From NCBI GenBank assembly GCA_029265815.1, contig JAJUGU010000002.1:62001-126000 (forward strand): a stretch of 64,000 nt of DNA. The letters are read 5' to 3'. The position numbers and the translations under genes are program-made. The notes below the pieces were generated by a model. The model searched no databases, was not told where the DNA came from, and worked only from the letters and a program-made list of their open reading frames with translations. Shown one piece after another: positions 23,350 to 53,208 of this stretch; position 1 is the first letter of the stretch, and each line of letters opens with the position of its first letter. The DNA is from Anaerolineaceae bacterium. Lineage in GTDB: Bacteria; Chloroflexota; Anaerolineae; Anaerolineales; Anaerolineaceae.

Positions 23350-24180
23350 ATGCAAATGATCGACAAATTTGGTGAGTTGGAAAGGATTTTTGGGACCAGA
23401 AAACCGATTATTGGTATGGTTCATCTGGCACCACTGCCGGGTTCACCCCGCTATGACGGCATGTCGATGCAGGAGATCACCGATCTGGCCCTGATGGATG
23501 CGCGTATGTTGAAGGAAGCGGGTGTGGATGGGGCGATTGTAGAAAACTTTGGAGACGTTATGTTTTATAAACGTGTTCCGGCTGAAACTATTGCAGCCAT
23601 GACGTATGTGGCCGCAAATATTGCCCGCGAAGTTCCCGGTTTGACTTTGGGGATGTGTGTACTGCAATCGGATGCTATCGCAGGTATGGCGATCGCTAAC
23701 ACGGTTGGCGCAAAATTCATCCGAGTGCCATATTACACCGAAACATACGTGGTAGATGCGGGTCTGATGGACAGTATTGCCGCTGAGACACTGCGTTATC
23801 GAAAATTCCTCAATGCTGATGTGAAGATCTTTGCTGATGTTCATATCAAACACGGCTACCCCTTATCACAGCGGCCAATCGGTGAAGCCGCAGCCGATGC
23901 AGAGCACCGCGGTCTGGCTGATGCCATCCTTGTTACGGGAATTGCAACCGGCGCGCAGACCAAGGCTGATGACGTAAAAGAAGTAAAAGAATCTGTAAAA
24001 GCCACACCGGTTTTCGTTGCCAGCGGAGTGGATGAGAAGAATCTTCCTCTTTACAAGAAGTATGCCGACGGTGCAATTTTAGGCACGCATATTAAAGTGA
24101 ACGAAGACACTGAAGCCCCAATCGATCCGAAAAAATTGAGCGCTTTCATGAAAGTTGCTCGTACCATTTGGCCAAAATAG
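23350..24180 (+). CDS. BtpA/SgcQ family protein, copy 1
   Basis: 276 aa, TIM-barrel family of unknown reaction, named after cyanobacterial BtpA and E. coli SgcQ. Family motifs: PIIGMVHLAPLPGSPRY at about 18-34, VDGAIVENFGDVMF (about 57-70), FADVHIKHGYPL (about 158-169) and ADAILVTGIATGAQT (about 185-199). The last segment resembles a phosphate-binding loop, so a phosphorylated sugar or nucleotide is a fair guess. It has a tandem paralogue right after it. Ribosome site AAAGGAAAG. Confidence 0.88.
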   Translation: MQMIDKFGELERIFGTRKPIIGMVHLAPLPGSPRYDGMSMQEITDLALMDARMLKEAGVDGAIVENFGDVMFYKRVPAETIAAMTYVAANIAREVPGLTLGMCVLQSDAIAGMAIANTVGAKFIRVPYYTETYVVDAGLMDSIAAETLRYRKFLNADVKIFADVHIKHGYPLSQRPIGEAAADAEHRGLADAILVTGIATGAQTKADDVKEVKESVKATPVFVASGVDEKNLPLYKKYADGAILGTHIKVNEDTEAPIDPKKLSAFMKVARTIWPK

Positions 24181-24193
24181 GAGAAATCATCCC

Positions 24194-25030
24194 ATGAGTA
24201 TGTACCCTGACGACACTCGTTTCCAAAGTTTTCATGATCTTTTCAGCGTGAAGAAGCCAATCATTGGTATGCTGCATCTTCCTCCGCTGCCAGGTTCGCC
24301 AATTTATAACGGAAAAGGTCTAAAAGAAGTCATTGACCGCGCTCTTTATGATGCTAACGAACTGCAGGAAGGCGGAGTGGATGCATTAGAAGTAGAAAAT
24401 TTCTCAGATCCTACGTATTATCCGCAGGAGGTTGGACCCGAATTGACCGCTGCTATGGCAGTGATCAGTGACCATGTCATCCGTGCCGCATCCAAGCCGG
24501 TGGGCATCTGCATCCTGGCTGATCCAAAAGCTTCTTTGAGCGTTGCTCATGCGGTTGGGGCCAAATTCGTGCGTGCCACTTTCTTCACCGAAGCCTCTGT
24601 GGATGTTTCTGGCCTGGTGTGCCCAAAGCCTCATGAGCTCCTACGCTTCCGCAAGTTTCTGGATCCCTCCATCAAGATCTTTACCGATGTGCATATCAAG
24701 CACTCTGCTCCGTTGGTCAACCGTCCTCTGGGTGACTCAGCTCTAGATGCCAAGTATTTCCTGTCGGACGCGGTCATTATCAGCGGCACCCACACCGGTA
24801 AAGAGACCAAACTGGAAGATCTTAAAGAGGCCAAGGATGCCGTAGAGGATTTCCCCGTGTTGGTGGGCAGTGGTTTCCGCAAAGAACATGCAGCAAAAAT
24901 TTTAGCTATTGCCGATGGCGCCATTGTTGGTACATCGCTGAAGAAAGACGGCGTCAGCTCTAATGTGGTCGATCGGAATCGTGTAAGGGACCTGATGGAA
25001 GTCGTTAAAGAAATCCGAAGCCGCTGTTAG
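24194..25030 (+). CDS. BtpA/SgcQ family protein, copy 2
   Basis: About 278 aa and clearly a paralogue of the gene before: PIIGMLHLPPLPGSPIYNG, VDALEVENFSDPTYYP, FTDVHIKHSAPLVNRP and DAVIISGTHTGKET align with the same motifs. The frame is open from 24155, but the Met at 24194 has AGGAGA about 9 nt upstream. A tandem pair may work as a heteromer or take successive steps in one pathway; sequence alone cannot tell. Confidence 0.88.
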   Translation: MSMYPDDTRFQSFHDLFSVKKPIIGMLHLPPLPGSPIYNGKGLKEVIDRALYDANELQEGGVDALEVENFSDPTYYPQEVGPELTAAMAVISDHVIRAASKPVGICILADPKASLSVAHAVGAKFVRATFFTEASVDVSGLVCPKPHELLRFRKFLDPSIKIFTDVHIKHSAPLVNRPLGDSALDAKYFLSDAVIISGTHTGKETKLEDLKEAKDAVEDFPVLVGSGFRKEHAAKILAIADGAIVGTSLKKDGVSSNVVDRNRVRDLMEVVKEIRSRC

Positions 25031-25139
25031 AGCAAATTCTCAAATCGACCTATTGCGAGAGGAGGTGTCAGGGAATTCTAGTTGCCGGTTTTCTTTACAG
25101 CTTTACTTATCCTACACATATATCGAAAGAGGTAGCCCG

Positions 25140-26231
25140 ATGATTAAGAAAAAGTTGATGGTTGTTGTTAGTCTTTTGGTTCTTGTTTCCATGCTTGTGG
25201 CATGCGCTCCAGCAGCAACTGAACCTGCTGTACCAACTGAAGCACCTGTTGCTGCCACTGAAGCGCCAGTAACCGCTCCAACTGAAGCTCCTGCTGCCAT
25301 CACGGTTGCGGTTGTTGCCGGTGGCGAAGTTGGTGATATGGGGTTCATCGATTCAGCCAACGCTGGTCTTCAACGACTCTCATCTGAATTGGGGCTCAAT
25401 ACGGTTATCGTTTCCAATAAAAACGATAACAATAACAACCTGGATGTTTTGCTCTCCGCAGCAGAACAGGCTGACCTGATCTTTGTGGTTCCCGGTTACT
25501 TTTTTGATGAACAGCTGAAACAGGTTGTTCCGCAATACCCTGATAAAACCTTTGTGTATGTTGATGGCGCATCCTCCATTGAAGGAATGACCTCCGTGGT
25601 CTTCAAACAGAATGAAGGCGCTTTCCTGATGGGAACCCTCGCTGCTCTGTTGACCACTGAAAACACCGCTCTGCCGCAGACAGATGAAGCCAAGGTGATT
25701 GGTTTCATGGGCGGCGCCGATATGCCGGTCATTCATGATTACCAGGTTGGATTCAATCAGGGTGCCAAGTATGCCGTGGAGGATATTGAAGTCATCAACC
25801 AGTACGCCGGTACGCACTTCGATCCTGCCAAGGGGAAAGAAACCGCTTTGGCTATCTATGGTGCTGGTGCTGATATCATCTTCCAGGCTGCGGGTCCCAC
25901 TGGACTTGGTTTGTTCGAAGCAGCAAAAGAAGCCCAAAAATATGCGATCGGTGTCGATACCAACCAGAAGAATCTGGCTCCCGATTGGGTTGTTGCCAGC
26001 ATGCTTAAAAATGTAGGTGATTCAATTTTCCTGTTCACCCAGTCTTTCCTCGCGGGTGAGATTCAGACCGGCGCAGTGATGTCTTATGGTCTGAAAGAGG
26101 GTGGTGTCGGAATCTCTTATGGCGATATGGATCCCGACCTGGTTCCGCAAGAAGTTAAGGATAAGGTTGCGGGTTTTGCCCAGGATATTATCGATGGCAA
26201 GGTTGTTGTAGAGACCTACACCGCTCAGTAA
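25140..26231 (+). CDS. BMP-family ABC substrate-binding lipoprotein
   Basis: About 363 aa after the start at 25140 (GAGG ribosome site). Lipobox SMLVAC with Cys22, then a Pro/Ala/Thr/Glu-rich linker. The mature domain is the basic membrane protein/PnrA-like type: VAGGEVGDMGFIDSANAGL, FVVPGYFFDEQ, GFMGGADMPVIHDYQVGF, IYGAGADIIFQAAGPTGLG and AIGVDTNQK. Known members bind purine nucleosides or similar ribosyl compounds. It is followed by a stem-loop and then the ATPase and two permeases. Confidence 0.92.
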   Translation: MIKKKLMVVVSLLVLVSMLVACAPAATEPAVPTEAPVAATEAPVTAPTEAPAAITVAVVAGGEVGDMGFIDSANAGLQRLSSELGLNTVIVSNKNDNNNNLDVLLSAAEQADLIFVVPGYFFDEQLKQVVPQYPDKTFVYVDGASSIEGMTSVVFKQNEGAFLMGTLAALLTTENTALPQTDEAKVIGFMGGADMPVIHDYQVGFNQGAKYAVEDIEVINQYAGTHFDPAKGKETALAIYGAGADIIFQAAGPTGLGLFEAAKEAQKYAIGVDTNQKNLAPDWVVASMLKNVGDSIFLFTQSFLAGEIQTGAVMSYGLKEGGVGISYGDMDPDLVPQEVKDKVAGFAQDIIDGKVVVETYTAQ

Positions 26232-26242
26232 TACTTTTGTGA

Positions 26243-26273
26243 GAGCAGGGTGGATCGTTTATCCACCCTGCTC
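26243..26273 (+). promoter_or_regulatory. Intercistronic stem-loop after BMP gene
   Basis: Perfect 13-bp stem GAGCAGGGTGGAT and ATCCACCCTGCTC, loop CGTTT, no T-run afterwards. It lies between the BMP lipoprotein and its ATPase, and may protect the upstream message or lower read-through. Confidence 0.75.
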
Positions 26274-26313
26274 AAGCGTTAGTGACTCAATTATTTATAA
26301 GAAGAGATTACCA

Positions 26314-27831
26314 GTGACTTACGCCATCGAAACACATCAGATAACCAAAGTGTTTGGTGATACTGTTGCCAATGACCGGATCGATTTACAGGTGATCGAA
26401 GGGCACATCCACGCTGTACTGGGTGAAAACGGTGCAGGGAAAACAACCTTAATGAAAATTCTCTTTGGAGAGGAACAACCAACTTCGGGTAAAATTCAGA
26501 TACGGGGGAAAACGGTAATGATCAGCAGCCCGGCAGAAGCCCTGCGCCTTTCCATCGGGTTTATCCATCAAAATTTTACGCTGGTTAATGAGTTCACCAT
26601 CGGACAAAACTTTGCGCTTGGGATTGAACCGCGCAAAAATCTCTTTTTCGCAGATTATGACAAGGTCAATCAAAAAGTACAAAAAATATTAGACCTGCTC
26701 GACATGCCATTGAAACTTGATGTACCGGTAGGTTCTTTTTCAGTGGAAGAACGCCAGATTGTCGAAATTGGCAAGGCGCTTTACCGCGGAGCTGAAATCT
26801 TAATTCTTGACGAGCCAACCTCCGTGTTAACCCCTCAAAAGATTGAAAAGTTGCTCGATATTTTGCGTAAATTACGCGATGAGGGCAAGACGATCATTAT
26901 GATTACCCACAAGCTTGAGGAAGCTTTTTCAATTGCTGATGAGATCAGCGTGCTGCGTAAAGGCAATCTGGTGGCCACTCTTCCACGAGCTTCGGTAACC
27001 AAAGACCAATTGATCCGTTTGATGGTTGGTGATGAACCGCTCAGTGTTGTTGAAAAAGCCCCGCATCAGTTCGGTGCTGCTTTGTTAGAAGTGAAAAATT
27101 TATGCGTCCGTTCCGGTGGCAGAGATTTGGTTAAGAACGTGAGTTTTGAAGTGCATCGTGGCGAGATCTTCGGTCTCACCGGAGTGGGTGGAAATGGACA
27201 GGGCGAGTTGATCGAGGCCCTGGTAGGAATGCGTCCGGCAACAGAGGGTGATATCCTCTTTGATGGGACGAGTGTGGTGAAGTGGGATATTCGGAAAAGA
27301 CGGCTGAATGGAATGGCGTACGTACCGGAAAACCGGGTTACTCGTGGAACAGCTGTTTCTCTCTCTGTTTTAGACAACCTTGTGATGGGTCACCATTATC
27401 TGCCTGATTTTCACCAGGGATTGGTCTTAAAACAGAAAAAAATGGAATCATTTGCCCTTGATATTATCAAACAGTATGAAGTTGTTGCCAGTTCGCTTGA
27501 GATCAATGCGGGTAGCCTATCGGGCGGTAATCTTCAAAAACTGGTTATCGGTCGTGAATTTTCAATGAATACACCTTTCCTTATTGTGGCTTATCCCAGC
27601 CAGGGGATTGATATTCGTACAACAAAATACGTCCAATCTGAATTGATTCGCAGGCGTGATTCAGGATGTGCAATTTTACTGGTGTCTGGTGACCTGGATG
27701 AAATATTCAGTCTGAGTGATCGGATTGGAGTCATGTATTCTGGAGAGTTGGTAGCCATTACCACGCCTGAAAGTACAAACAGGTTTGAACTGGGCCAGTA
27801 CATGGTTGGATCGCGGAGAAATGGCCAATGA
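26314..27831 (+). CDS. Nucleoside-type ABC importer ATPase (two ABC domains)
   Basis: About 505 aa with two fused nucleotide-binding domains, as in the NupO/RbsA type. First domain: Walker A GENGAGKTT (about 37-45), signature VGSFSVEERQIVEI (degenerate), Walker B ILILDEPTSVL. Second domain: GVGGNGQGEL in place of Walker A, SLSGGNLQKL as signature. The Walker B of domain 2 reads FLIVAYPSQGID, where D-E is replaced, so the second site is probably inactive, as is usual in this family. GTG start at 26314 was chosen because the family homology begins there; an upstream frame from 26239 overlaps the stem-loop. Confidence 0.9.
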   Translation: MTYAIETHQITKVFGDTVANDRIDLQVIEGHIHAVLGENGAGKTTLMKILFGEEQPTSGKIQIRGKTVMISSPAEALRLSIGFIHQNFTLVNEFTIGQNFALGIEPRKNLFFADYDKVNQKVQKILDLLDMPLKLDVPVGSFSVEERQIVEIGKALYRGAEILILDEPTSVLTPQKIEKLLDILRKLRDEGKTIIMITHKLEEAFSIADEISVLRKGNLVATLPRASVTKDQLIRLMVGDEPLSVVEKAPHQFGAALLEVKNLCVRSGGRDLVKNVSFEVHRGEIFGLTGVGGNGQGELIEALVGMRPATEGDILFDGTSVVKWDIRKRRLNGMAYVPENRVTRGTAVSLSVLDNLVMGHHYLPDFHQGLVLKQKKMESFALDIIKQYEVVASSLEINAGSLSGGNLQKLVIGREFSMNTPFLIVAYPSQGIDIRTTKYVQSELIRRRDSGCAILLVSGDLDEIFSLSDRIGVMYSGELVAITTPESTNRFELGQYMVGSRRNGQ

Positions 27832-28883
27832 AAGCGACTAACAAGATACGTCGAACCATCTTCCAACAGGGATTAAGTTTTATCAGCACCATCGCTCTGG
27901 CGCTGCTCTTGGGTTTTGTTATGCTGTGGCTAAATGGATCAGCTCCAAAAGATGTGCTGGCAGCAGCCGGGTCAAGCACTTTCGCATCTCCTTTCCGTTT
28001 TGCCAACATGATCAGCCGTATGTTGACGATCGTGCTGGTCTCGTTAGCTGCAGCGATCCCGTTCAAAGCAGGCGTGTGGAATATTGGCGGTGATGGGCAG
28101 CTGGCCATGGGCGGATTCTTTTCGGCCATGGTGGGTGTCTACGTTACCAGTTTGCCGCCCGTGCTGCATATTGGTCTGGCTGTGCTGGCGGGAATGGCTG
28201 GCGGAGCGTTGTGGGCTGCGATACCGGCCTATGTGCGATTGAAATTCAAAGCCAACGAGATCGTTACCACGATCATGATGAATTATCTGGCTGCGCTGGT
28301 GACGGGTTATCTGGTGAATTACCCGTTCCGTGCTCCTGGGTCTGCTAATGCTGAAACATCCCTCGTGCAGGAATCAGCGATTCTGTCACAGATGGTTCCT
28401 CTTTCCAATCTAAGTACTGGTTTGTATATTGTTATTGCCACTTTTATCCTGATCTGCTTTCTTGATTGGAAGACCAGCTGGGGTTATGAATGGCGGGTAC
28501 TTGGTTCTAACGACGAGTTTGCCCGTTATGGCGGCGTAAAAGACAATCGGATGCGTTTCCTTTCAATGTTAATCGGCGGTGCCCTGGCAGGATTAGCAGG
28601 CACGATTCTGGTGCTGGGTTCTTATCATAAATTTATTCTTAACCTGGGTGGCGGGATCGGCTTCACAGGTGTTCTGATTGCCATTATCGCTGCAAACAGC
28701 CCAATTTTGATCTTGATCGTGTCGGCCATTTTCGCGATTTTATCCAATAGCACAGTTGGGCTGGAGGCGCGACTTGGGATTGCTACCGAATTTAGCAGTA
28801 TCTTACAAAGTGTCATTATTTTACTGGTCATCACCCGGTCGAACATCTGGGCAGGAATTACTAAATTAGTGAAACGCAGGTAA
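27828..28883 (+). CDS. Nucleoside-type ABC permease 1
   Basis: 351 aa of the branched-chain/ribose permease fold used by BMP importers. The EAA-like segment is typical: IPFKAGVWNIGGDGQLAMGGFF (about 80-100), LKFKANEIVTTIMMNYLA and LGGGIGFTGVLIAIIAANSP. About eight membrane segments. It overlaps the ATPase stop by 4 bp (ATGA), so translation is coupled. Confidence 0.92.
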   Translation: MKATNKIRRTIFQQGLSFISTIALALLLGFVMLWLNGSAPKDVLAAAGSSTFASPFRFANMISRMLTIVLVSLAAAIPFKAGVWNIGGDGQLAMGGFFSAMVGVYVTSLPPVLHIGLAVLAGMAGGALWAAIPAYVRLKFKANEIVTTIMMNYLAALVTGYLVNYPFRAPGSANAETSLVQESAILSQMVPLSNLSTGLYIVIATFILICFLDWKTSWGYEWRVLGSNDEFARYGGVKDNRMRFLSMLIGGALAGLAGTILVLGSYHKFILNLGGGIGFTGVLIAIIAANSPILILIVSAIFAILSNSTVGLEARLGIATEFSSILQSVIILLVITRSNIWAGITKLVKRR

Positions 28884-28887
28884 AAGC

Positions 28888-29793
28888 ATGGAAAATTTAG
28901 CTGAATTCTTACGTGCTTCCATCCGTCTTACCACTCCGTTGCTTCTGGCAGCGCTTGGTGGCGCTTTTATGCAGGTTGCCGGTGTCCCGAATATCGGTAT
29001 GGAAGGGATGATGTTAATCGCCGCGCTGGTTGGCTACATCGTCAGCTTTACAACTGGATCCTGGCTGATGGGATTATTATTCGGTGTCTTAGCCGCAGTT
29101 TTCGTGGGTCTCATTTATGCCTTCTTTGTGTTGCGATTGAAAGCAGATATCTTTGCTATTGGTATTACATTAAACATTTTTATGGGTGGTGTGGCTGCAT
29201 ATATCATCCGCCAGTACTATGACCAGATCTCAATGCTTCATTCACCTAATGCGAAGCTGCTTCCAACGGTCTCGCTGCCCTTCCTGGCGGAAAACAAGAT
29301 TCTGAATGTGTTATTTAACAACTATACCATTCTGGTGCCTGTTTCCTTTTTGCTTGTACTGGTGACTTTTGTGGTCTTCTACAAGACACCTTTTGGGTTC
29401 TGGCTAAGGGCTGCGGGGTCTAATCCTCTCGCGGTGAGCGCATCAGGAAAGAGCATTACGGGTATCCGCTTTGCCGCATTTATCATCAGCGCAGCTCTGT
29501 GTGGCCTGGCAGGGGTGCACCTTTCTCTTGGTTATCTGGGGATGTTTGCATTGTCTTTGGTCGCGGGGCGTGGTTTCGTAGCGCTGGCCATCGTTCTATT
29601 TGGCAGCGGCAACCCGGTTACCGTGTTGATCGCCAGCTTGATTTTTGGCATCGCCGATGCTGCCAGTCTGCGTATTCCTACAGAGATTATTCCGCCGCAA
29701 TTCCCGCTGATGCTGCCTTACATCATCACTATCCTGGCAATTACTCTGATGAGCCGTTTCGCCAGGTCGTTTACCAGCACCGAACAGAAATGA
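28888..29793 (+). CDS. Nucleoside-type ABC permease 2
   Basis: 301 aa, partner permease. Conserved GVPNIGMEGMMLIAALVGY near the N-terminus and VAGRGFVALAIVLFGSGNP, then a C-terminal LPYIITILAITLM. It is slightly shorter than the first permease, as in the NupP/NupQ pairs. Starts 4 bp after its partner and precedes the hydrolase by 13 bp. Confidence 0.92.
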   Translation: MENLAEFLRASIRLTTPLLLAALGGAFMQVAGVPNIGMEGMMLIAALVGYIVSFTTGSWLMGLLFGVLAAVFVGLIYAFFVLRLKADIFAIGITLNIFMGGVAAYIIRQYYDQISMLHSPNAKLLPTVSLPFLAENKILNVLFNNYTILVPVSFLLVLVTFVVFYKTPFGFWLRAAGSNPLAVSASGKSITGIRFAAFIISAALCGLAGVHLSLGYLGMFALSLVAGRGFVALAIVLFGSGNPVTVLIASLIFGIADAASLRIPTEIIPPQFPLMLPYIITILAITLMSRFARSFTSTEQK

Positions 29794-29806
29794 TCGCAGG
29801 TCAAAA

Positions 29807-30832
29807 ATGTCGTCGGTAATGAGTGTAACAGGCCCATTGGCCAAGGATGAACTGGGATTAACCCTGCCGCACGAGCATCTTTTTGTTGATTTGCGTTGTT
29901 ACTGTCCGGTTGAGCCGCGGGATGAAAACCAGAGGAATAATTACCGCCAACCAGTAACCCTGCAAAACCGTTCAAAGGTGGTGAACCAACCCTGGGAATA
30001 TCGAGACAATCCATTTCTTGATGATCTTGAAAGTTCCCTAAATGAAGTGCTTGCTTTTAAAACACTGGGTGGAACAACAATTGCTGACCTCTCGTGTTCT
30101 CTCGCTATGGGGCGCGACCCACAGAAGCTGCGCCTGGTGGCAGAACGCACAGGGGTGAACATTATCATGTCTTCCGGACGTTATACTCTGCCATCCCTTA
30201 CTGAAACAGAGCGGAATCTTAGCGAGGCATTCATTGAAGCCCGCATTCTCGATGAATTCTACAATGGCGTCGATGGCGGTATTTACCCTGGAATTCTCAA
30301 AGCCGGGTTTGTCGGTGAAACTGATAAAGAGCCTGAAATTCGAACTCTGCGAGCTGTGGGAAGAGCTCAGGCTAAGATCGGTTGTGCCCTGGCCGTGCAC
30401 CCCCATATCTGGCAGCCAGATAGTCACCGCATCTTAGATATTCTCGAGGACGTGGGCTGTGATTTGCGACGGGTCATCCTCTGCCACCAGGATTTCCTGG
30501 GGCTCCAAACTGCCTATTTGGATTCACTTTGTAAACGCGGTGTATATATTGAGTTCGATACTTTTGGAAGCGGCTGGATCAATGATCGAATGTGGCAGCT
30601 TACCGATGAGCAAAAAATTGGTTTTCTCAAGCAGCAGGTGGATCTGGGCAATCAAGAACAACTGTTGATTTCAGGAGATATGTGCCTTAAGCTCATGTTA
30701 AAAAAGTGGGGTGGGGTTGGTTATGTCAATATTCCAAAATTCGTGATCCCGGCGATGAAGGCCGCGGGATTTTCGAGTGAAGTCATCCATCTGATCACAG
30801 TTGAAAACCCGGCTCGAGTCTTTTGCCATTAA
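29807..30832 (+). CDS. Phosphotriesterase-family metal-dependent hydrolase
   Basis: 341 aa of the amidohydrolase superfamily. Ligand positions of the binuclear site are visible: LPHEHLFVD (H-x-H, about 20-28), PGILKAG (Lys that may be carbamylated), ALAVHPHIW, VILCHQDFLG and LISGDMCLK (final Asp). Natural substrates of this family are often sugar lactones, phosphosugars or esters rather than organophosphates. With a kinase and a nucleoside-like importer next to it, a role in opening or hydrolysing a ribosyl derivative is plausible but not shown. Confidence 0.85.
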   Translation: MSSVMSVTGPLAKDELGLTLPHEHLFVDLRCYCPVEPRDENQRNNYRQPVTLQNRSKVVNQPWEYRDNPFLDDLESSLNEVLAFKTLGGTTIADLSCSLAMGRDPQKLRLVAERTGVNIIMSSGRYTLPSLTETERNLSEAFIEARILDEFYNGVDGGIYPGILKAGFVGETDKEPEIRTLRAVGRAQAKIGCALAVHPHIWQPDSHRILDILEDVGCDLRRVILCHQDFLGLQTAYLDSLCKRGVYIEFDTFGSGWINDRMWQLTDEQKIGFLKQQVDLGNQEQLLISGDMCLKLMLKKWGGVGYVNIPKFVIPAMKAAGFSSEVIHLITVENPARVFCH

Positions 30833-30853
30833 AATGATTGATAGGATTCCATT

Positions 30854-31846
30854 ATGGTTAACGAAAAAAAGATCACACAGGTAGAAATCTTGGGTATTGG
30901 TGACGCGATGGTGGATCTTACCACACGTGCGTCGCAGCTTCCACCGCGGGGAGGCAATATCTGGAGCACCGCAGTAACCTTGAGCCCGGGGGGAACTACA
31001 GCCAACGTCGCTGCAGGTATCGCAAGGCTGGGTTTAAGATCATCGTTCATCGGTTGTGTAGGAGACGACCCTTACGGACGGTACACGATTGAGCAATTTC
31101 AACGAGTTGGAGTGGACACCAGCCGGATAAGGCTCCGCCCCGGAGCGTTTACCGGGATCGTTCTGGCCATCGTTGACGACACAGGTGAACGTACATTTAT
31201 CGCGTGCGCCAAGGGGGCTTCATATACTTTGCTGGATGAGCAAGATTTCGCAGGCATAAATTTAAAAGAAATCCCGATCATACATTCCACTGGGGTGTGT
31301 CTGGTGGAAGAACCTTCGCGCTCGGTGCTGCTGAAGGTGCTGGAGCAGGCGCACCAGGCCGGATGTAACGTATTTTTTGATCCAAACCTGCGTCTGGAAG
31401 GGAATGTGTTCAGGGATGAATTGCGCATAGCCCAATGGAAAGCGTTTTCCTTTTCAGATGTGGTCTTAATTGGCGACAATGAGGTGGAATTGATGTTCCC
31501 GGGAAAAACGCTAAGGGAAGCTGCCGGGATGATCTGCGGGCAGGGGGCGAAAATTGTGGTTGTCAAGCAGGGAGAGAAGGGAGCATCGGTGTTCAGCGCT
31601 GATGGTGAGGAATCGTGCCCGGCGTTTCAGGTTAACGTCAATAGCACCACAGGAGCGGGTGACTCATTCAACGCCGGGTTCATTGCAGCACGGGTGAGAG
31701 GTGCAAGCCTTCACGACGCGCTGGTGTATGCCTGCGCTGTGGCCGGGCTTAAGGTCACCGGGATGGACGCGCGTTCAGTGCCAACACATCAAGAAGTGAT
31801 GGCTTTCCTGGCGCAGCGGGGTTTCAAGCTTTGTTTGATGGATTAA
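30854..31846 (+). CDS. PfkB-family sugar or nucleoside kinase
   Basis: 330 aa. N-terminal LGIGDAMVDLTTRASQLPP and SPGGTTANVAAGIARLG, which shape the substrate pocket, and the C-terminal PfkB signature NSTTGAGDSFNAGFIAA with catalytic Asp in GAGDSF. It would phosphorylate a sugar or nucleoside brought in by the BMP importer and thus trap it in the cell. It is the last gene of the GntR operon and is followed by a terminator. Confidence 0.9.
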   Translation: MVNEKKITQVEILGIGDAMVDLTTRASQLPPRGGNIWSTAVTLSPGGTTANVAAGIARLGLRSSFIGCVGDDPYGRYTIEQFQRVGVDTSRIRLRPGAFTGIVLAIVDDTGERTFIACAKGASYTLLDEQDFAGINLKEIPIIHSTGVCLVEEPSRSVLLKVLEQAHQAGCNVFFDPNLRLEGNVFRDELRIAQWKAFSFSDVVLIGDNEVELMFPGKTLREAAGMICGQGAKIVVVKQGEKGASVFSADGEESCPAFQVNVNSTTGAGDSFNAGFIAARVRGASLHDALVYACAVAGLKVTGMDARSVPTHQEVMAFLAQRGFKLCLMD

Positions 31847-49835: not shown

Positions 49836-51626
49836 TTAATAATATGTGGTTCGCATGACTGGCTGAAATAGAGACTTTCTATGTGCACAAACCTCATTCG
49901 CGGCGCATTGGCCGCAAACCGGTTCTGTCATTTCGGGGCAATGCTGTCGAGAATAATAAAAGAAAAACCAATCCACTGCCCTAAGACTTTTACCAGAAAT
50001 TCTGACGACATCTTCCACTGCCAGGTAACAGGCATAACGGATGGCCCATTCTTCATCTTCGGTGACGGTTTTTCGTGCTTCGATTTTTTCTTTAAGCTTC
50101 TCATCCAGTATCTCCACCAATCCCATGCGCAGGCAGCTGCGCATCGTGTGGTAATCAATGACCGGAGGTACAGACTCGTCTTCTCCGAAATTTAAAAACG
50201 CTTCAGGCCGTTGGTTAAGTACCAGGGCCAGCAGGTTGGATTTTTTCCGTAAGGGATCTTCTTTATAACCGCCAATCTGGTCTAACTCGTGTAAAAAGGT
50301 CTTCAGCGGAGTGGAAGAGGCTTTTGCCAGTGCTAAAATTCCTTGCGGAGTCTTCCCGGTAGCCAGCATGTCTCGACCGTAATCTACCGCCATTTTATGA
50401 TGAAGTTTCAGAGCTGGCATTGGGTCACTGCCATCATCTGCTTTGAATAACTGCTGCAAATCCTCCAGTGTAAGTGAGGCCTGGCGCTCAGGAGAATAAA
50501 AATCCGGATCGGAATCTAGCAGCCTGACGCAAGCCCTGAACAAATACGCAGACCCTTTTAAGTTATCACCATCAATGGTTGCGATTAATGGATGATCGTA
50601 ATGATCGTCTTTTTCCTCCCAAAAACTGAATTGCTGCAATATGGTGGCGAAGAAATAATCGAGGGTTTTTGGGTGGAAAGCGGGGGGGAAATCTTTACCG
50701 GTGAAGTCTGAGGGGCTGGCCGCGCTCGACTTGCTAACCAATCGGGATATTTTTTCAATTTGCTTGTGATTCAACCTCACAGAAGTATGGATAGTGGCTG
50801 CCGGAGCATGTTCTTTTTTTAATAAGGCCTTTGGGCCAACCTCTCGAATTTCTTCCGTAGCCAGGGCCATTCCTTTTTGAGCAGCCATTACCGGATGCTC
50901 ACCCTGTAATAACGCCGCTAGAGTAGCGCCGCAAAAACTATCGCCTGCTCCAGTTGGATCAAACACCTGAGAAGGAATGGATTTCAGGAACGTACGATGA
51001 CTTCCCTGAACGACCAGACAGCCTTTCTCACCCATGGTGACAAACAATAATTTTCCAGGTTTTGTGGTTATCTTTTCAGAGGAACCAAAAATCAGGCAGG
51101 CTTCCTCCTCGTTCATAAAAAACACGTCTGCAATTTCTAGCGACTGTAAGATGGATAGTCTTTTCTCTTTGATCATGCAGAGGTAGGTTCCCGCTGAGAT
51201 CAATCTGGTCCCTTTTTGCCGGCATGCGTGTATAAATTGGAATTGCAGATCGGAATCACCCAGGGGGGTGAAATGGATGCAATCAAATTTTCCGAGGTCT
51301 GCGGGCAGCTGGTAGATTCTCAACAGACTTTCGGCACCAATAGAAGTGTGAAGGTAATGAGCTTTTTCACCACAATGTTCGATCTCGAAATGTGGAAGGT
51401 CTGCAGGTTTTACGGCAGGTCCAAACCAACGGTCAAGCCGCTTTTCTATTTCTTTGAGTTCATCGGGCATTGGTTCTGGTTTTGGGGCAAACATACTGGT
51501 GGAAACTCCACAACGGATAGCCGCCATCGAGGTATACATTCCCGCACCGCCTGCTGAATGATAGGTGCGATTCTGAAGATGAAGTGTGTCGAGTGATGCG
51601 CCGCCAACCACCAGTAGTTTCACCAT
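49836..51626 (-). CDS. PfkB kinase fused to a Cys4-cluster (HhH/Qng1-like) domain
   Basis: 596 aa, about twice the size of a PfkB kinase. Residues 1-255 are the kinase: YHSAGGAGMYTSMAAIRCG and the signature DPTGAGDSF at 223-231 with catalytic Asp229. Residues about 310-596 are mostly helical and end in Cys563-x7-Cys571-x2-Cys574-x5-Cys580, a spacing close to the [4Fe-4S] loop of endonuclease III-type glycosylases. The segment from NLKGSAYLF to GRDMLA recalls the DUF2419 (Qng1) queuosine-nucleotide glycosylase family, but this is from memory of the pattern only. A kinase joined to a nucleotide N-glycosylase would suit nucleoside (perhaps queuosine) salvage. A simple sugar kinase plus an unrelated Fe-S domain is the alternative. 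Confidence 0.75.
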   Translation of the reverse strand: MVKLLVVGGASLDTLHLQNRTYHSAGGAGMYTSMAAIRCGVSTSMFAPKPEPMPDELKEIEKRLDRWFGPAVKPADLPHFEIEHCGEKAHYLHTSIGAESLLRIYQLPADLGKFDCIHFTPLGDSDLQFQFIHACRQKGTRLISAGTYLCMIKEKRLSILQSLEIADVFFMNEEEACLIFGSSEKITTKPGKLLFVTMGEKGCLVVQGSHRTFLKSIPSQVFDPTGAGDSFCGATLAALLQGEHPVMAAQKGMALATEEIREVGPKALLKKEHAPAATIHTSVRLNHKQIEKISRLVSKSSAASPSDFTGKDFPPAFHPKTLDYFFATILQQFSFWEEKDDHYDHPLIATIDGDNLKGSAYLFRACVRLLDSDPDFYSPERQASLTLEDLQQLFKADDGSDPMPALKLHHKMAVDYGRDMLATGKTPQGILALAKASSTPLKTFLHELDQIGGYKEDPLRKKSNLLALVLNQRPEAFLNFGEDESVPPVIDYHTMRSCLRMGLVEILDEKLKEKIEARKTVTEDEEWAIRYACYLAVEDVVRISGKSLRAVDWFFFYYSRQHCPEMTEPVCGQCAANEVCAHRKSLFQPVMRTTYY

Positions 51627-52927: not shown

Positions 52928-53134
52928 AAGGCGAAAGGAAAAATGTTTTATCGGAACAATCTGTTTGGGTAACAACTGGAAATGGTTATTGTTCAGACAG
53001 GTAATAGAATGGTAATGTGATATCAGTAATCAATTAAAAAAGAAGTTTGCCAAGATTCAAAATGATTCATTCCAACCGTCAAGATCTGGCGTAGTGGGCA
53101 TGAAAGCAGCTGTTAGATTTTATGGAAAAATAGG
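52928..53134. other. Short intergenic region
   Basis: About 200 bp between the lipoprotein gene and the 3' end of the tRNA gene. No terminator or reading frame was recognised. Confidence 0.35.
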
Positions 53135-53208
53135 CGCCCCCGGCGCGGCTCGAACGCGCAACCTACTGATTCGAAGTCAGGCACTCTGTCCAATTGAGCT
53201 ACGGGGGC
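53135..53208 (-). tRNA. tRNA-Arg (anticodon UCG)
   Basis: On the minus strand the 7-bp acceptor stem GCCCCCG and CGGGGGC, the T arm GCGCG-TTCGAGC-CGCGC and the anticodon loop CTTCGAA are all present; anticodon UCG reads CGA. The 3' CCA is not encoded (CCT follows the discriminator G). 74 nt long. Confidence 0.95.

What the first reader, a model, noticed from the sequence alone, without database searches (positions are those of the whole stretch)
49836..51626. PfkB kinase fused to a domain ending in a Cys4 cluster: a nucleoside salvage enzyme?
The kinase signature DPTGAGDSF is intact, and the second half ends in Cys-x7-Cys-x2-Cys-x5-Cys, near the endonuclease III type Fe-S loop. The middle recalls the DUF2419 (Qng1) family that splits queuosine 5'-phosphate, which is described as having a DNA-glycosylase-like fold. 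A nucleoside kinase plus a nucleotide glycosylase in one chain would carry out two steps of queuine salvage. The fusion is seen; the salvage role is inference.
Basis: partly seen in the sequence, partly recalled or inferred. Interest (0 to 1): 0.7.

Follow-up and report, generated by a model that had tools for sequence, protein, structure and literature searches.

The report
Kinase fused to queuosine-salvage hydrolase
One bacterial protein joins a nucleoside kinase to an iron-sulfur-type relative of the enzyme that frees the vitamin-like base queuine from queuosine phosphate, so it probably does two consecutive salvage steps and offers a candidate gene for the missing queuosine kinase.

Summary
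Confirmed: window 49836-51626 is one 596-aa gene, on the MINUS strand, joining a PfkB-type nucleoside kinase (aa 1-275) to a divergent Qng1/DUF2419 domain (aa 283-596). The second half passes the Pfam Q_salvage cut-off, and its profile finds a Qng1 crystal structure at E=1e-12. Its AlphaFold model superposes on Qng1 at Z 28 (2.3 A, 280 residues), far above AGOG and endonuclease III (Z about 14). The residues equivalent to Qng1 K199 and D231 are invariant in 52 of 52 relatives, and so are the four cysteines. Canonical Qng1 lacks those cysteines; their spacing is that of the endonuclease III 4Fe-4S loop plus one residue. The same fusion occurs in about six phyla, so it is neither chance nor an assembly artefact. 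Most likely mechanism: phosphorylate the nucleoside at O5', then hydrolyse the N-glycosidic bond, as PsuK-PsuG do for pseudouridine. Queuosine is the likeliest substrate but is unproven. The genome lacks QueC, yet has a preQ1-type TGT, QueA and QueG, so the fate of freed queuine is open. I found no description of this fusion in the held literature; the two primary Qng1 papers were not readable.

The parts
49836..51626 (-). Whole fusion gene, 596 aa, ATG start to stop
   Evidence: ORF list and translation; 80 fetched relatives, mostly the same fusion
50802..51626 (-). PfkB nucleoside-kinase domain, aa 1-275
   Evidence: Pfam PF00294 77.2 bits; profile best hit nucleoside kinase 3kd6 E 2.7e-18; Foldseek best hit 3kd6
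50934..50960 (-). Kinase signature DPTGAGDSF, aa 223-231, with catalytic base D229
   Evidence: D223, T225, G226, A227, G228 invariant, D229 Asp in 49 and Glu in 3 of 52
49839..50780 (-). Divergent Qng1/DUF2419 domain, aa 283-596
   Evidence: Pfam PF10343 above cut-off; profile hit 7ugk E 1.1e-12; HHalign to canonical Qng1 E 2e-10; model Z 28.1 to Qng1
50244..50246 (-). K461, equivalent of Qng1 K199
   Evidence: alignments; invariant 52/52; K199C mutant named in PDB title
50154..50156 (-). D491, equivalent of Qng1 D231 and of the EndoIII catalytic Asp
   Evidence: alignments; invariant 52/52; D231N mutant named in PDB title
49971..49973 (-). D552, equivalent of Qng1 D298 (F556 four residues on replaces W302)
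49887..49940 (-). Cys4 loop C563-x7-C571-x2-C574-x5-C580, putative 4Fe-4S site
   Evidence: invariant 52/52; aligned with the EndoIII Fe-S loop

Best explanation
A two-step nucleoside salvage enzyme in one chain. The N-terminal PfkB domain phosphorylates a modified ribonucleoside, most likely queuosine (Q) from tRNA turnover or the environment, at the 5'-hydroxyl with ATP. The C-terminal Qng1-type domain then hydrolyses the resulting 5'-monophosphate at the N-glycosidic bond, with D491 and K461 in the places of Qng1 D231 and K199, releasing the 7-deazaguanine base (queuine) and ribose 5-phosphate. The Cys4 loop binds a structural 4Fe-4S cluster as in endonuclease III. Shown by computation: the fusion, both folds, conservation of both active sites and of the Cys4, and wide occurrence. 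Inferred: both activities, the order of steps, the Fe-S cluster, and queuosine as substrate. My estimate is about 0.8 for the generic mechanism (nucleoside kinase plus 5'-nucleotide N-glycosylase) and about 0.55 with queuosine as the specific substrate; the score given is for the latter.
For: Q_salvage above cut-off; Qng1 structure by profile at 1.1e-12; model Z 28.1, 2.3 A over 280 residues, to Qng1 structures solved with queuosine and queuosine 5'-monophosphate; K199, D231 and D298 equivalents conserved in 51-52 of 52. Kinase half closest to nucleoside kinases by profile and fold, catalytic motif intact. The two activities are ordered like PsuK then PsuG, fused in several eukaryotes (PMC9247573). 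Qng1's main substrate is the 5'-monophosphate (PMC11592518), and a queuosine kinase activity was claimed in animal cell extracts (PMC4425180), so a kinase partner is expected. Most fusion genomes have TGT, QueA and QueG, hence a working Q pathway, and most lack QueC, hence depend on salvage.
Against: The TGTs of the fusion genomes read have the ordinary preQ1-type loop GGLSVGE, with QueA and QueG present, so freed queuine has no obvious direct use unless their TGT accepts it, a second TGT does, or a QueL-type lyase exists (not searched). QueC is missing from order relatives without the fusion too, so there is no demonstrated association. Qng1 W302 is replaced by Phe. Sequence identity to Qng1 is only about 17%, so substrate may have shifted. 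No gene-neighbourhood link to que genes and no preQ1 riboswitch.
Confidence: 0.55

Rival explanations
1. Same two-step chemistry, but on another 7-deazaguanine nucleoside: the enzyme recycles preQ1 (or preQ0) from its nucleoside or nucleotide, feeding the preQ1-type TGT, QueA and QueG that these genomes carry.
For: TGT loop GGLSVGE in all fusion genomes read, QueA in 45 of 47, QueG in 34 of 35, QueC in 7 of 47. TGTs lying beside canonical Qng1 have a different loop, GG-SLG, which suggests that canonical Qng1 and this family serve different TGTs. The very long branch to canonical Qng1 allows a substrate shift.
Against: A natural pool of preQ1 nucleoside is not established; queuosine is the abundant end product in tRNA. 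No pocket residue evidence was available.
Confidence: 0.2
2. Same two-step chemistry, but on an unrelated modified or damaged purine nucleoside (for example an oxidised guanosine), as catabolism or nucleotide-pool cleaning rather than queuosine salvage.
For: Fold neighbours after Qng1 are 8-oxoguanine glycosylase AGOG, EndoIII and MutY; a distant relative (L035:2689-3705) also matches AGOG at E 1.5e-4, under its cut-off. No genomic link to que genes.
Against: Qng1 stands far above all DNA glycosylases in fold (Z 28 against 14) and profile.
Confidence: 0.15
3. The two halves do not act in sequence: the kinase half serves another metabolite, or the C-domain acts on nucleic acid, and the fusion only co-expresses them.
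For: The kinase alone occurs in some relatives (G006, G041, G045, G052, G054) and the C-domain alone in Brevefilum-like genomes (L096, L098).
Against: The fusion holds across about six phyla, and the C-only Brevefilum proteins nest inside the fused clade, so that split is secondary. No HhH-GPD Pfam match up to E=10. PsuKG shows the sequential logic.
Confidence: 0.1

Closest known systems
Qng1 / DUF2419 / PF10343 (queuosine 5'-phosphate N-glycosylase; PDB 7u91, 7ulc, 7ugk)
   Same: Whole-domain fold (Z 28.1), K199, D231 and D298 equivalents, shared C-terminal RT-x-x-Y motif, phosphorylated nucleoside expected as substrate
   Different: About 17% identity, W302 to Phe, extra invariant Cys4 loop, N-terminal kinase fusion
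Nucleoside kinases of the PfkB family (Chlorobium tepidum 3kd6, M. jannaschii 2c49)
   Same: Fold, GG motif, N-x-x-E and DxTGAGD motifs; best hits by profile and by fold
   Different: Fused to a glycosylase; substrate unknown
PsuK-PsuG and fused PsuKG (pseudouridine kinase and pseudouridine 5'-phosphate glycosidase)
   Same: Logic: PfkB kinase makes the 5'-phosphate, a second enzyme cleaves base from ribose 5-phosphate; both halves may be one chain
   Different: PsuG is an unrelated C-glycosidase fold and, in the fusion, comes first in the chain; base differs
Endonuclease III / MutY / AGOG DNA glycosylases
   Same: Shared fold core (Z about 12-14), D-x-H-type catalytic Asp segment; EndoIII has a Cys4 loop of near-identical spacing
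   Different: No HhH-GPD Pfam match; probably acts on a mononucleotide, not DNA

Membership tests
PfkB carbohydrate/nucleoside kinase (PF00294) | Profile match over the curated cut-off | tested here: met
   77.2 bits against 25.8; 52 of 52 relatives match
PfkB carbohydrate/nucleoside kinase (PF00294) | N-terminal GG motif and DxTGAGD anion hole with catalytic Asp | tested here: met
   G26 G27 invariant; D223-G228 invariant; D229 Asp 49/52, Glu 3/52
PfkB carbohydrate/nucleoside kinase (PF00294) | Phosphorylates a nucleoside with ATP | not testable with these tools
   Nearest structures are nucleoside kinases, which is suggestive only
Qng1 / DUF2419 (PF10343) | Profile match over the curated cut-off | tested here: met
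   34.9 bits against 25, but covering only profile positions 8-108 of 285; 37 of 52 relatives match at E 0.001
Qng1 / DUF2419 (PF10343) | Whole-domain fold of Qng1 | tested here: met
   VIA Z 28.1, rmsd 2.3, 280 aligned; Foldseek E 4.2e-12
Qng1 / DUF2419 (PF10343) | Active-site K199, D231, D298 | tested here: met
   K461 52/52, D491 52/52, D552 51/52
Qng1 / DUF2419 (PF10343) | Active-site W302 | tested here: not met
   Phe556 in 52/52; aromatic, so conservative; hence filed as a divergent subfamily, not as an ordinary Qng1
Qng1 / DUF2419 (PF10343) | Hydrolyses queuosine 5'-monophosphate to queuine | not testable with these tools
   Needs an assay
EndoIII/MutY-type 4Fe-4S HhH-GPD glycosylase | HhH-GPD Pfam family match | tested here: not met
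   No HhH-GPD row with max E 10
EndoIII/MutY-type 4Fe-4S HhH-GPD glycosylase | Cys4 loop C-x6-C-x2-C-x5-C at the C-terminal side of the glycosylase core | tested here: inconclusive
   Same place and spacing but for one extra residue in the first gap, invariant in 52/52; profile aligns it with EndoIII at non-significant E about 0.6; metal content not testable

The most novel reading that the evidence does not exclude
A previously undescribed Fe-S subfamily of Qng1, an evolutionary link between endonuclease III-type DNA glycosylases and the eukaryotic queuine-salvage enzyme, is fused to the first genetically identified queuosine (or 7-deazaguanosine) kinase and lets bacteria of several phyla recycle the base from the free nucleoside.
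Probability: 0.5. Interest if true: 0.75.

Novelty: new variant of a known kind. Interest (0 to 1): 0.62.

Why it matters
A queuosine kinase activity was claimed in animal cell extracts because the salvage substrate is the 5'-monophosphate (PMC4425180), but I found no gene named for it in the papers I could search. A natural fusion of a nucleoside kinase to a Qng1 domain makes that question directly testable with one protein. The Cys4 loop also bears on how a DNA-repair fold became a vitamin-salvage enzyme: canonical Qng1 may descend from an Fe-S glycosylase and have lost the cluster, or this branch may have gained one.

Tried and rejected
Chance or artefact ORF: rejected by 80 fetched relatives. 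Operon or neighbourhood clue: neighbours of 80 relatives show only lineage-local synteny and no que genes that I could recognise. preQ1 riboswitch: none found in the window or 11 loci at gathering threshold. Viral copies: none confirmed. QueC absence as support for salvage: true for most fusion genomes, but no order relative of 61 passes the QueC cut-off, with or without the fusion (one weaker match), so it is not evidence of association. QueD, QueE, QueF and QueL were not searched for the same reason. The primary Qng1 papers (Zallot 2014; Hung 2023) are not held, so pocket residues could not be checked against the text; K199 and D231 come from PDB titles, D298 and W302 from PMC11592518. G050/L116 and L103 show the two halves in different frames; not pursued, may be sequencing errors or real splits.

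Full report
OBSERVATION. The finding's coordinates hold one uninterrupted ORF of 596 aa on the minus strand; the plus strand of the same frame is closed by many stops. The kinase signature DPTGAGDSF (aa 223-231) and the terminal C-x7-C-x2-C-x5-C cluster (aa 563-580) are present as described. The genes around it (an ABC transporter set at 45.7-49.4 kb that by its sequences looks like phosphate uptake; an M28 peptidase at 53.2-55.5 kb) bear no visible relation to it.

DOMAINS. Pfam gives PfkB (aa 130-267, 77.2 bits, cut-off 25.8) and Q_salvage, the DUF2419/Qng1 family (aa 319-422, 34.9 bits, cut-off 25). The single-sequence search already finds the Qng1 structure 7ugk at 5e-4. A profile of 46 relatives of the second half finds 7ugk at 1.1e-12 over profile positions 8-251 of 313. 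The next hit, not significant (E 0.58), is endonuclease III, aligned just at the catalytic-Asp segment (VDTHVERVSKRLGF against DYHxMRxxLRxGL) and at the Fe-S cysteines. Profile-profile comparison with 17 canonical Chloroflexota Qng1 sequences gives probability 96.9%, E 2e-10, over 244 columns.

STRUCTURE. The C-domain model (pLDDT 93.6, pTM 0.90) matches Qng1 crystal structures first (Foldseek E 4e-12; VIA Z 28.1, 2.3 A over 280 residues), then AGOG and endonuclease III at Z about 13.8, then MutY. The full-length model (pLDDT 92.6, pTM 0.93) matches nucleoside kinase 3kd6 first; by sequence profile too, the nucleoside kinases 3kd6 and 2c49 come ahead of ribokinases (titles). PDB titles name D231N and K199C mutants of Qng1 and show queuosine and queuosine 5'-monophosphate as ligands; PMC11592518 names D298 and W302 as active-site residues. 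The canonical alignment keeps the same spacings (K152, D184, D251, W255), which fixes the mapping: K199=K461, D231=D491, D298=D552, W302=F556. In 52 fusions these are K in 52, D in 52, D in 51, F in 52.

CYS4. The four cysteines are invariant in 52 of 52 fusions, with the same spacing in 97 of the 98 aligned rows of A3 and A4, and no such cluster is seen at the C-terminal ends of the 17 canonical Qng1 sequences. They lie between the helix that carries D552 and the shared C-terminal RT-x-x-Y motif, where canonical Qng1 has a short loop. Endonuclease III has C-x6-C-x2-C-x5-C in the equivalent place. A 4Fe-4S cluster is the natural inference; zinc is not excluded.

DISTRIBUTION. A scan of 84,980 species genomes confirmed 126 relatives. 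In the 80 fetched, the two halves are fused in most; exceptions are two Brevefilum-like genomes and L107 with the C-domain alone, two loci with the halves in different frames, and several cut by contig ends. Record titles name Chloroflexota, Neomarinimicrobiota, SAR324, Myxococcales, Gemmatimonadota and Acidobacteriota; some MAG titles (for example Klebsiella, Coprothermobacterota) look misnamed. The C-only Brevefilum proteins sit inside the fused clade, so they probably lost the kinase. Q_salvage matches are common elsewhere in Chloroflexota (99 of 400 genomes, mostly canonical Qng1), and canonical Qng1 is separated by a very long branch. No viral copy was confirmed, and no gene neighbourhood is conserved beyond close relatives.

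QUEUOSINE PATHWAY CONTEXT. In 47 genomes (46 with the C-domain, nearly all as the fusion, plus the kinase-only G006), TGT is found in 42, QueA in 45 and QueC above cut-off in only 7; in a subset of 35, QueG matches in 34 (30 over the cut-off) and QueH in 1. The QPTR transporter is found in 23 of 47. The window's own genome has TGT, QueA, QueG and QPTR but no QueC. No order relative reaches the QueC cut-off, with or without the fusion, so this says that the whole lineage depends on outside precursors, not that the fusion fills the gap. The main TGT of G000 and of the other fusion genomes read has the loop GGLSVGE, in contrast to GG-SLG in TGTs lying beside canonical Qng1. That GGLSVGE marks preQ1 use rests on my knowledge of TGT specificity residues. 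The pathway in these genomes therefore looks preQ1-fed, and what happens to queuine is the main open point.

MECHANISM. Best reading: ATP-dependent 5'-phosphorylation of a modified nucleoside, then hydrolysis of the nucleotide to base and ribose 5-phosphate. Precedents: Qng1's primary substrate is queuosine 5'-monophosphate (PMC11592518), a queuosine kinase activity was claimed in animal cell extracts (PMC4425180), and pseudouridine is handled by a PfkB kinase plus a 5'-phosphate glycosidase, fused in several eukaryotes (PMC9247573). Shown: anatomy, homology, conservation, spread. Inferred: both activities, their order, the metal, the substrate.

KNOWN OR NEW. It works like Qng1 preceded by a nucleoside kinase. 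As to membership, it passes the Qng1 family cut-off, the fold and three of four named active-site residues, and fails one (W302 to Phe); I file it as a divergent subfamily. Full-text searches of the held open-access library found no report of a kinase-Qng1 fusion, but the two primary Qng1 papers are not held, so prior mention there is possible.

Noticed in passing
L163:3287-6102 (-) (window's own genome, contig C21); also L165, L166, L168; TGT2 alone in L169: A second TGT paralogue keeps the catalytic Asp residues and zinc ligands but has the loop GGWPLD instead of GGLSVGE. It sits in an operon-like row with two homologues of the 16S rRNA G1405 N7-methyltransferase family (FmrO/Rmt) and an RsmB/F-type m5C methyltransferase, and in G000 a QPTR transporter lies within 6 kb. 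A TGT acting with rRNA methyltransferases hints at a 7-deazaguanine in rRNA or a new TGT specificity.
   Followed up: partly
L175, L176, L177, L178, L187, L195, L197 (Chloroflexota genomes with canonical Qng1): TGTs with the loop GG-SLG instead of GGLSVGE; in L176, L178 and L197 they lie directly beside the canonical qng1 gene: a likely queuine-type bacterial TGT.
   Followed up: partly
L035:2689-3705 (+): A distant stand-alone relative (338 aa) with more cysteines matches both Q_salvage (E 1.4e-6) and, under its cut-off, the DNA glycosylase AGOG (E 1.5e-4): a possible intermediate between the two families.
   Followed up: partly
window 24155-31846 (+): BtpA-family protein, BMP-type ABC transporter (substrate-binding protein, ATPase, two permeases), phosphotriesterase-family protein and a second PfkB kinase in a row: looks like a nucleoside or related sugar uptake cluster in the same window.
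   Followed up: no
window 53133-53208 (-): tRNA-Arg (TCG) just upstream of the intergenic stretch next to the M28 peptidase; the only tRNA or Rfam match in the window.
   Followed up: no
L037:5677-6492 (+), L040:4592-5458 (+), L041:307-1134 (-): Kinase-only relatives (about 35-53% identical to the kinase half) without the Qng1 part in other Anaerolineales genomes; their partner hydrolase, if any, is unknown.
   Followed up: no
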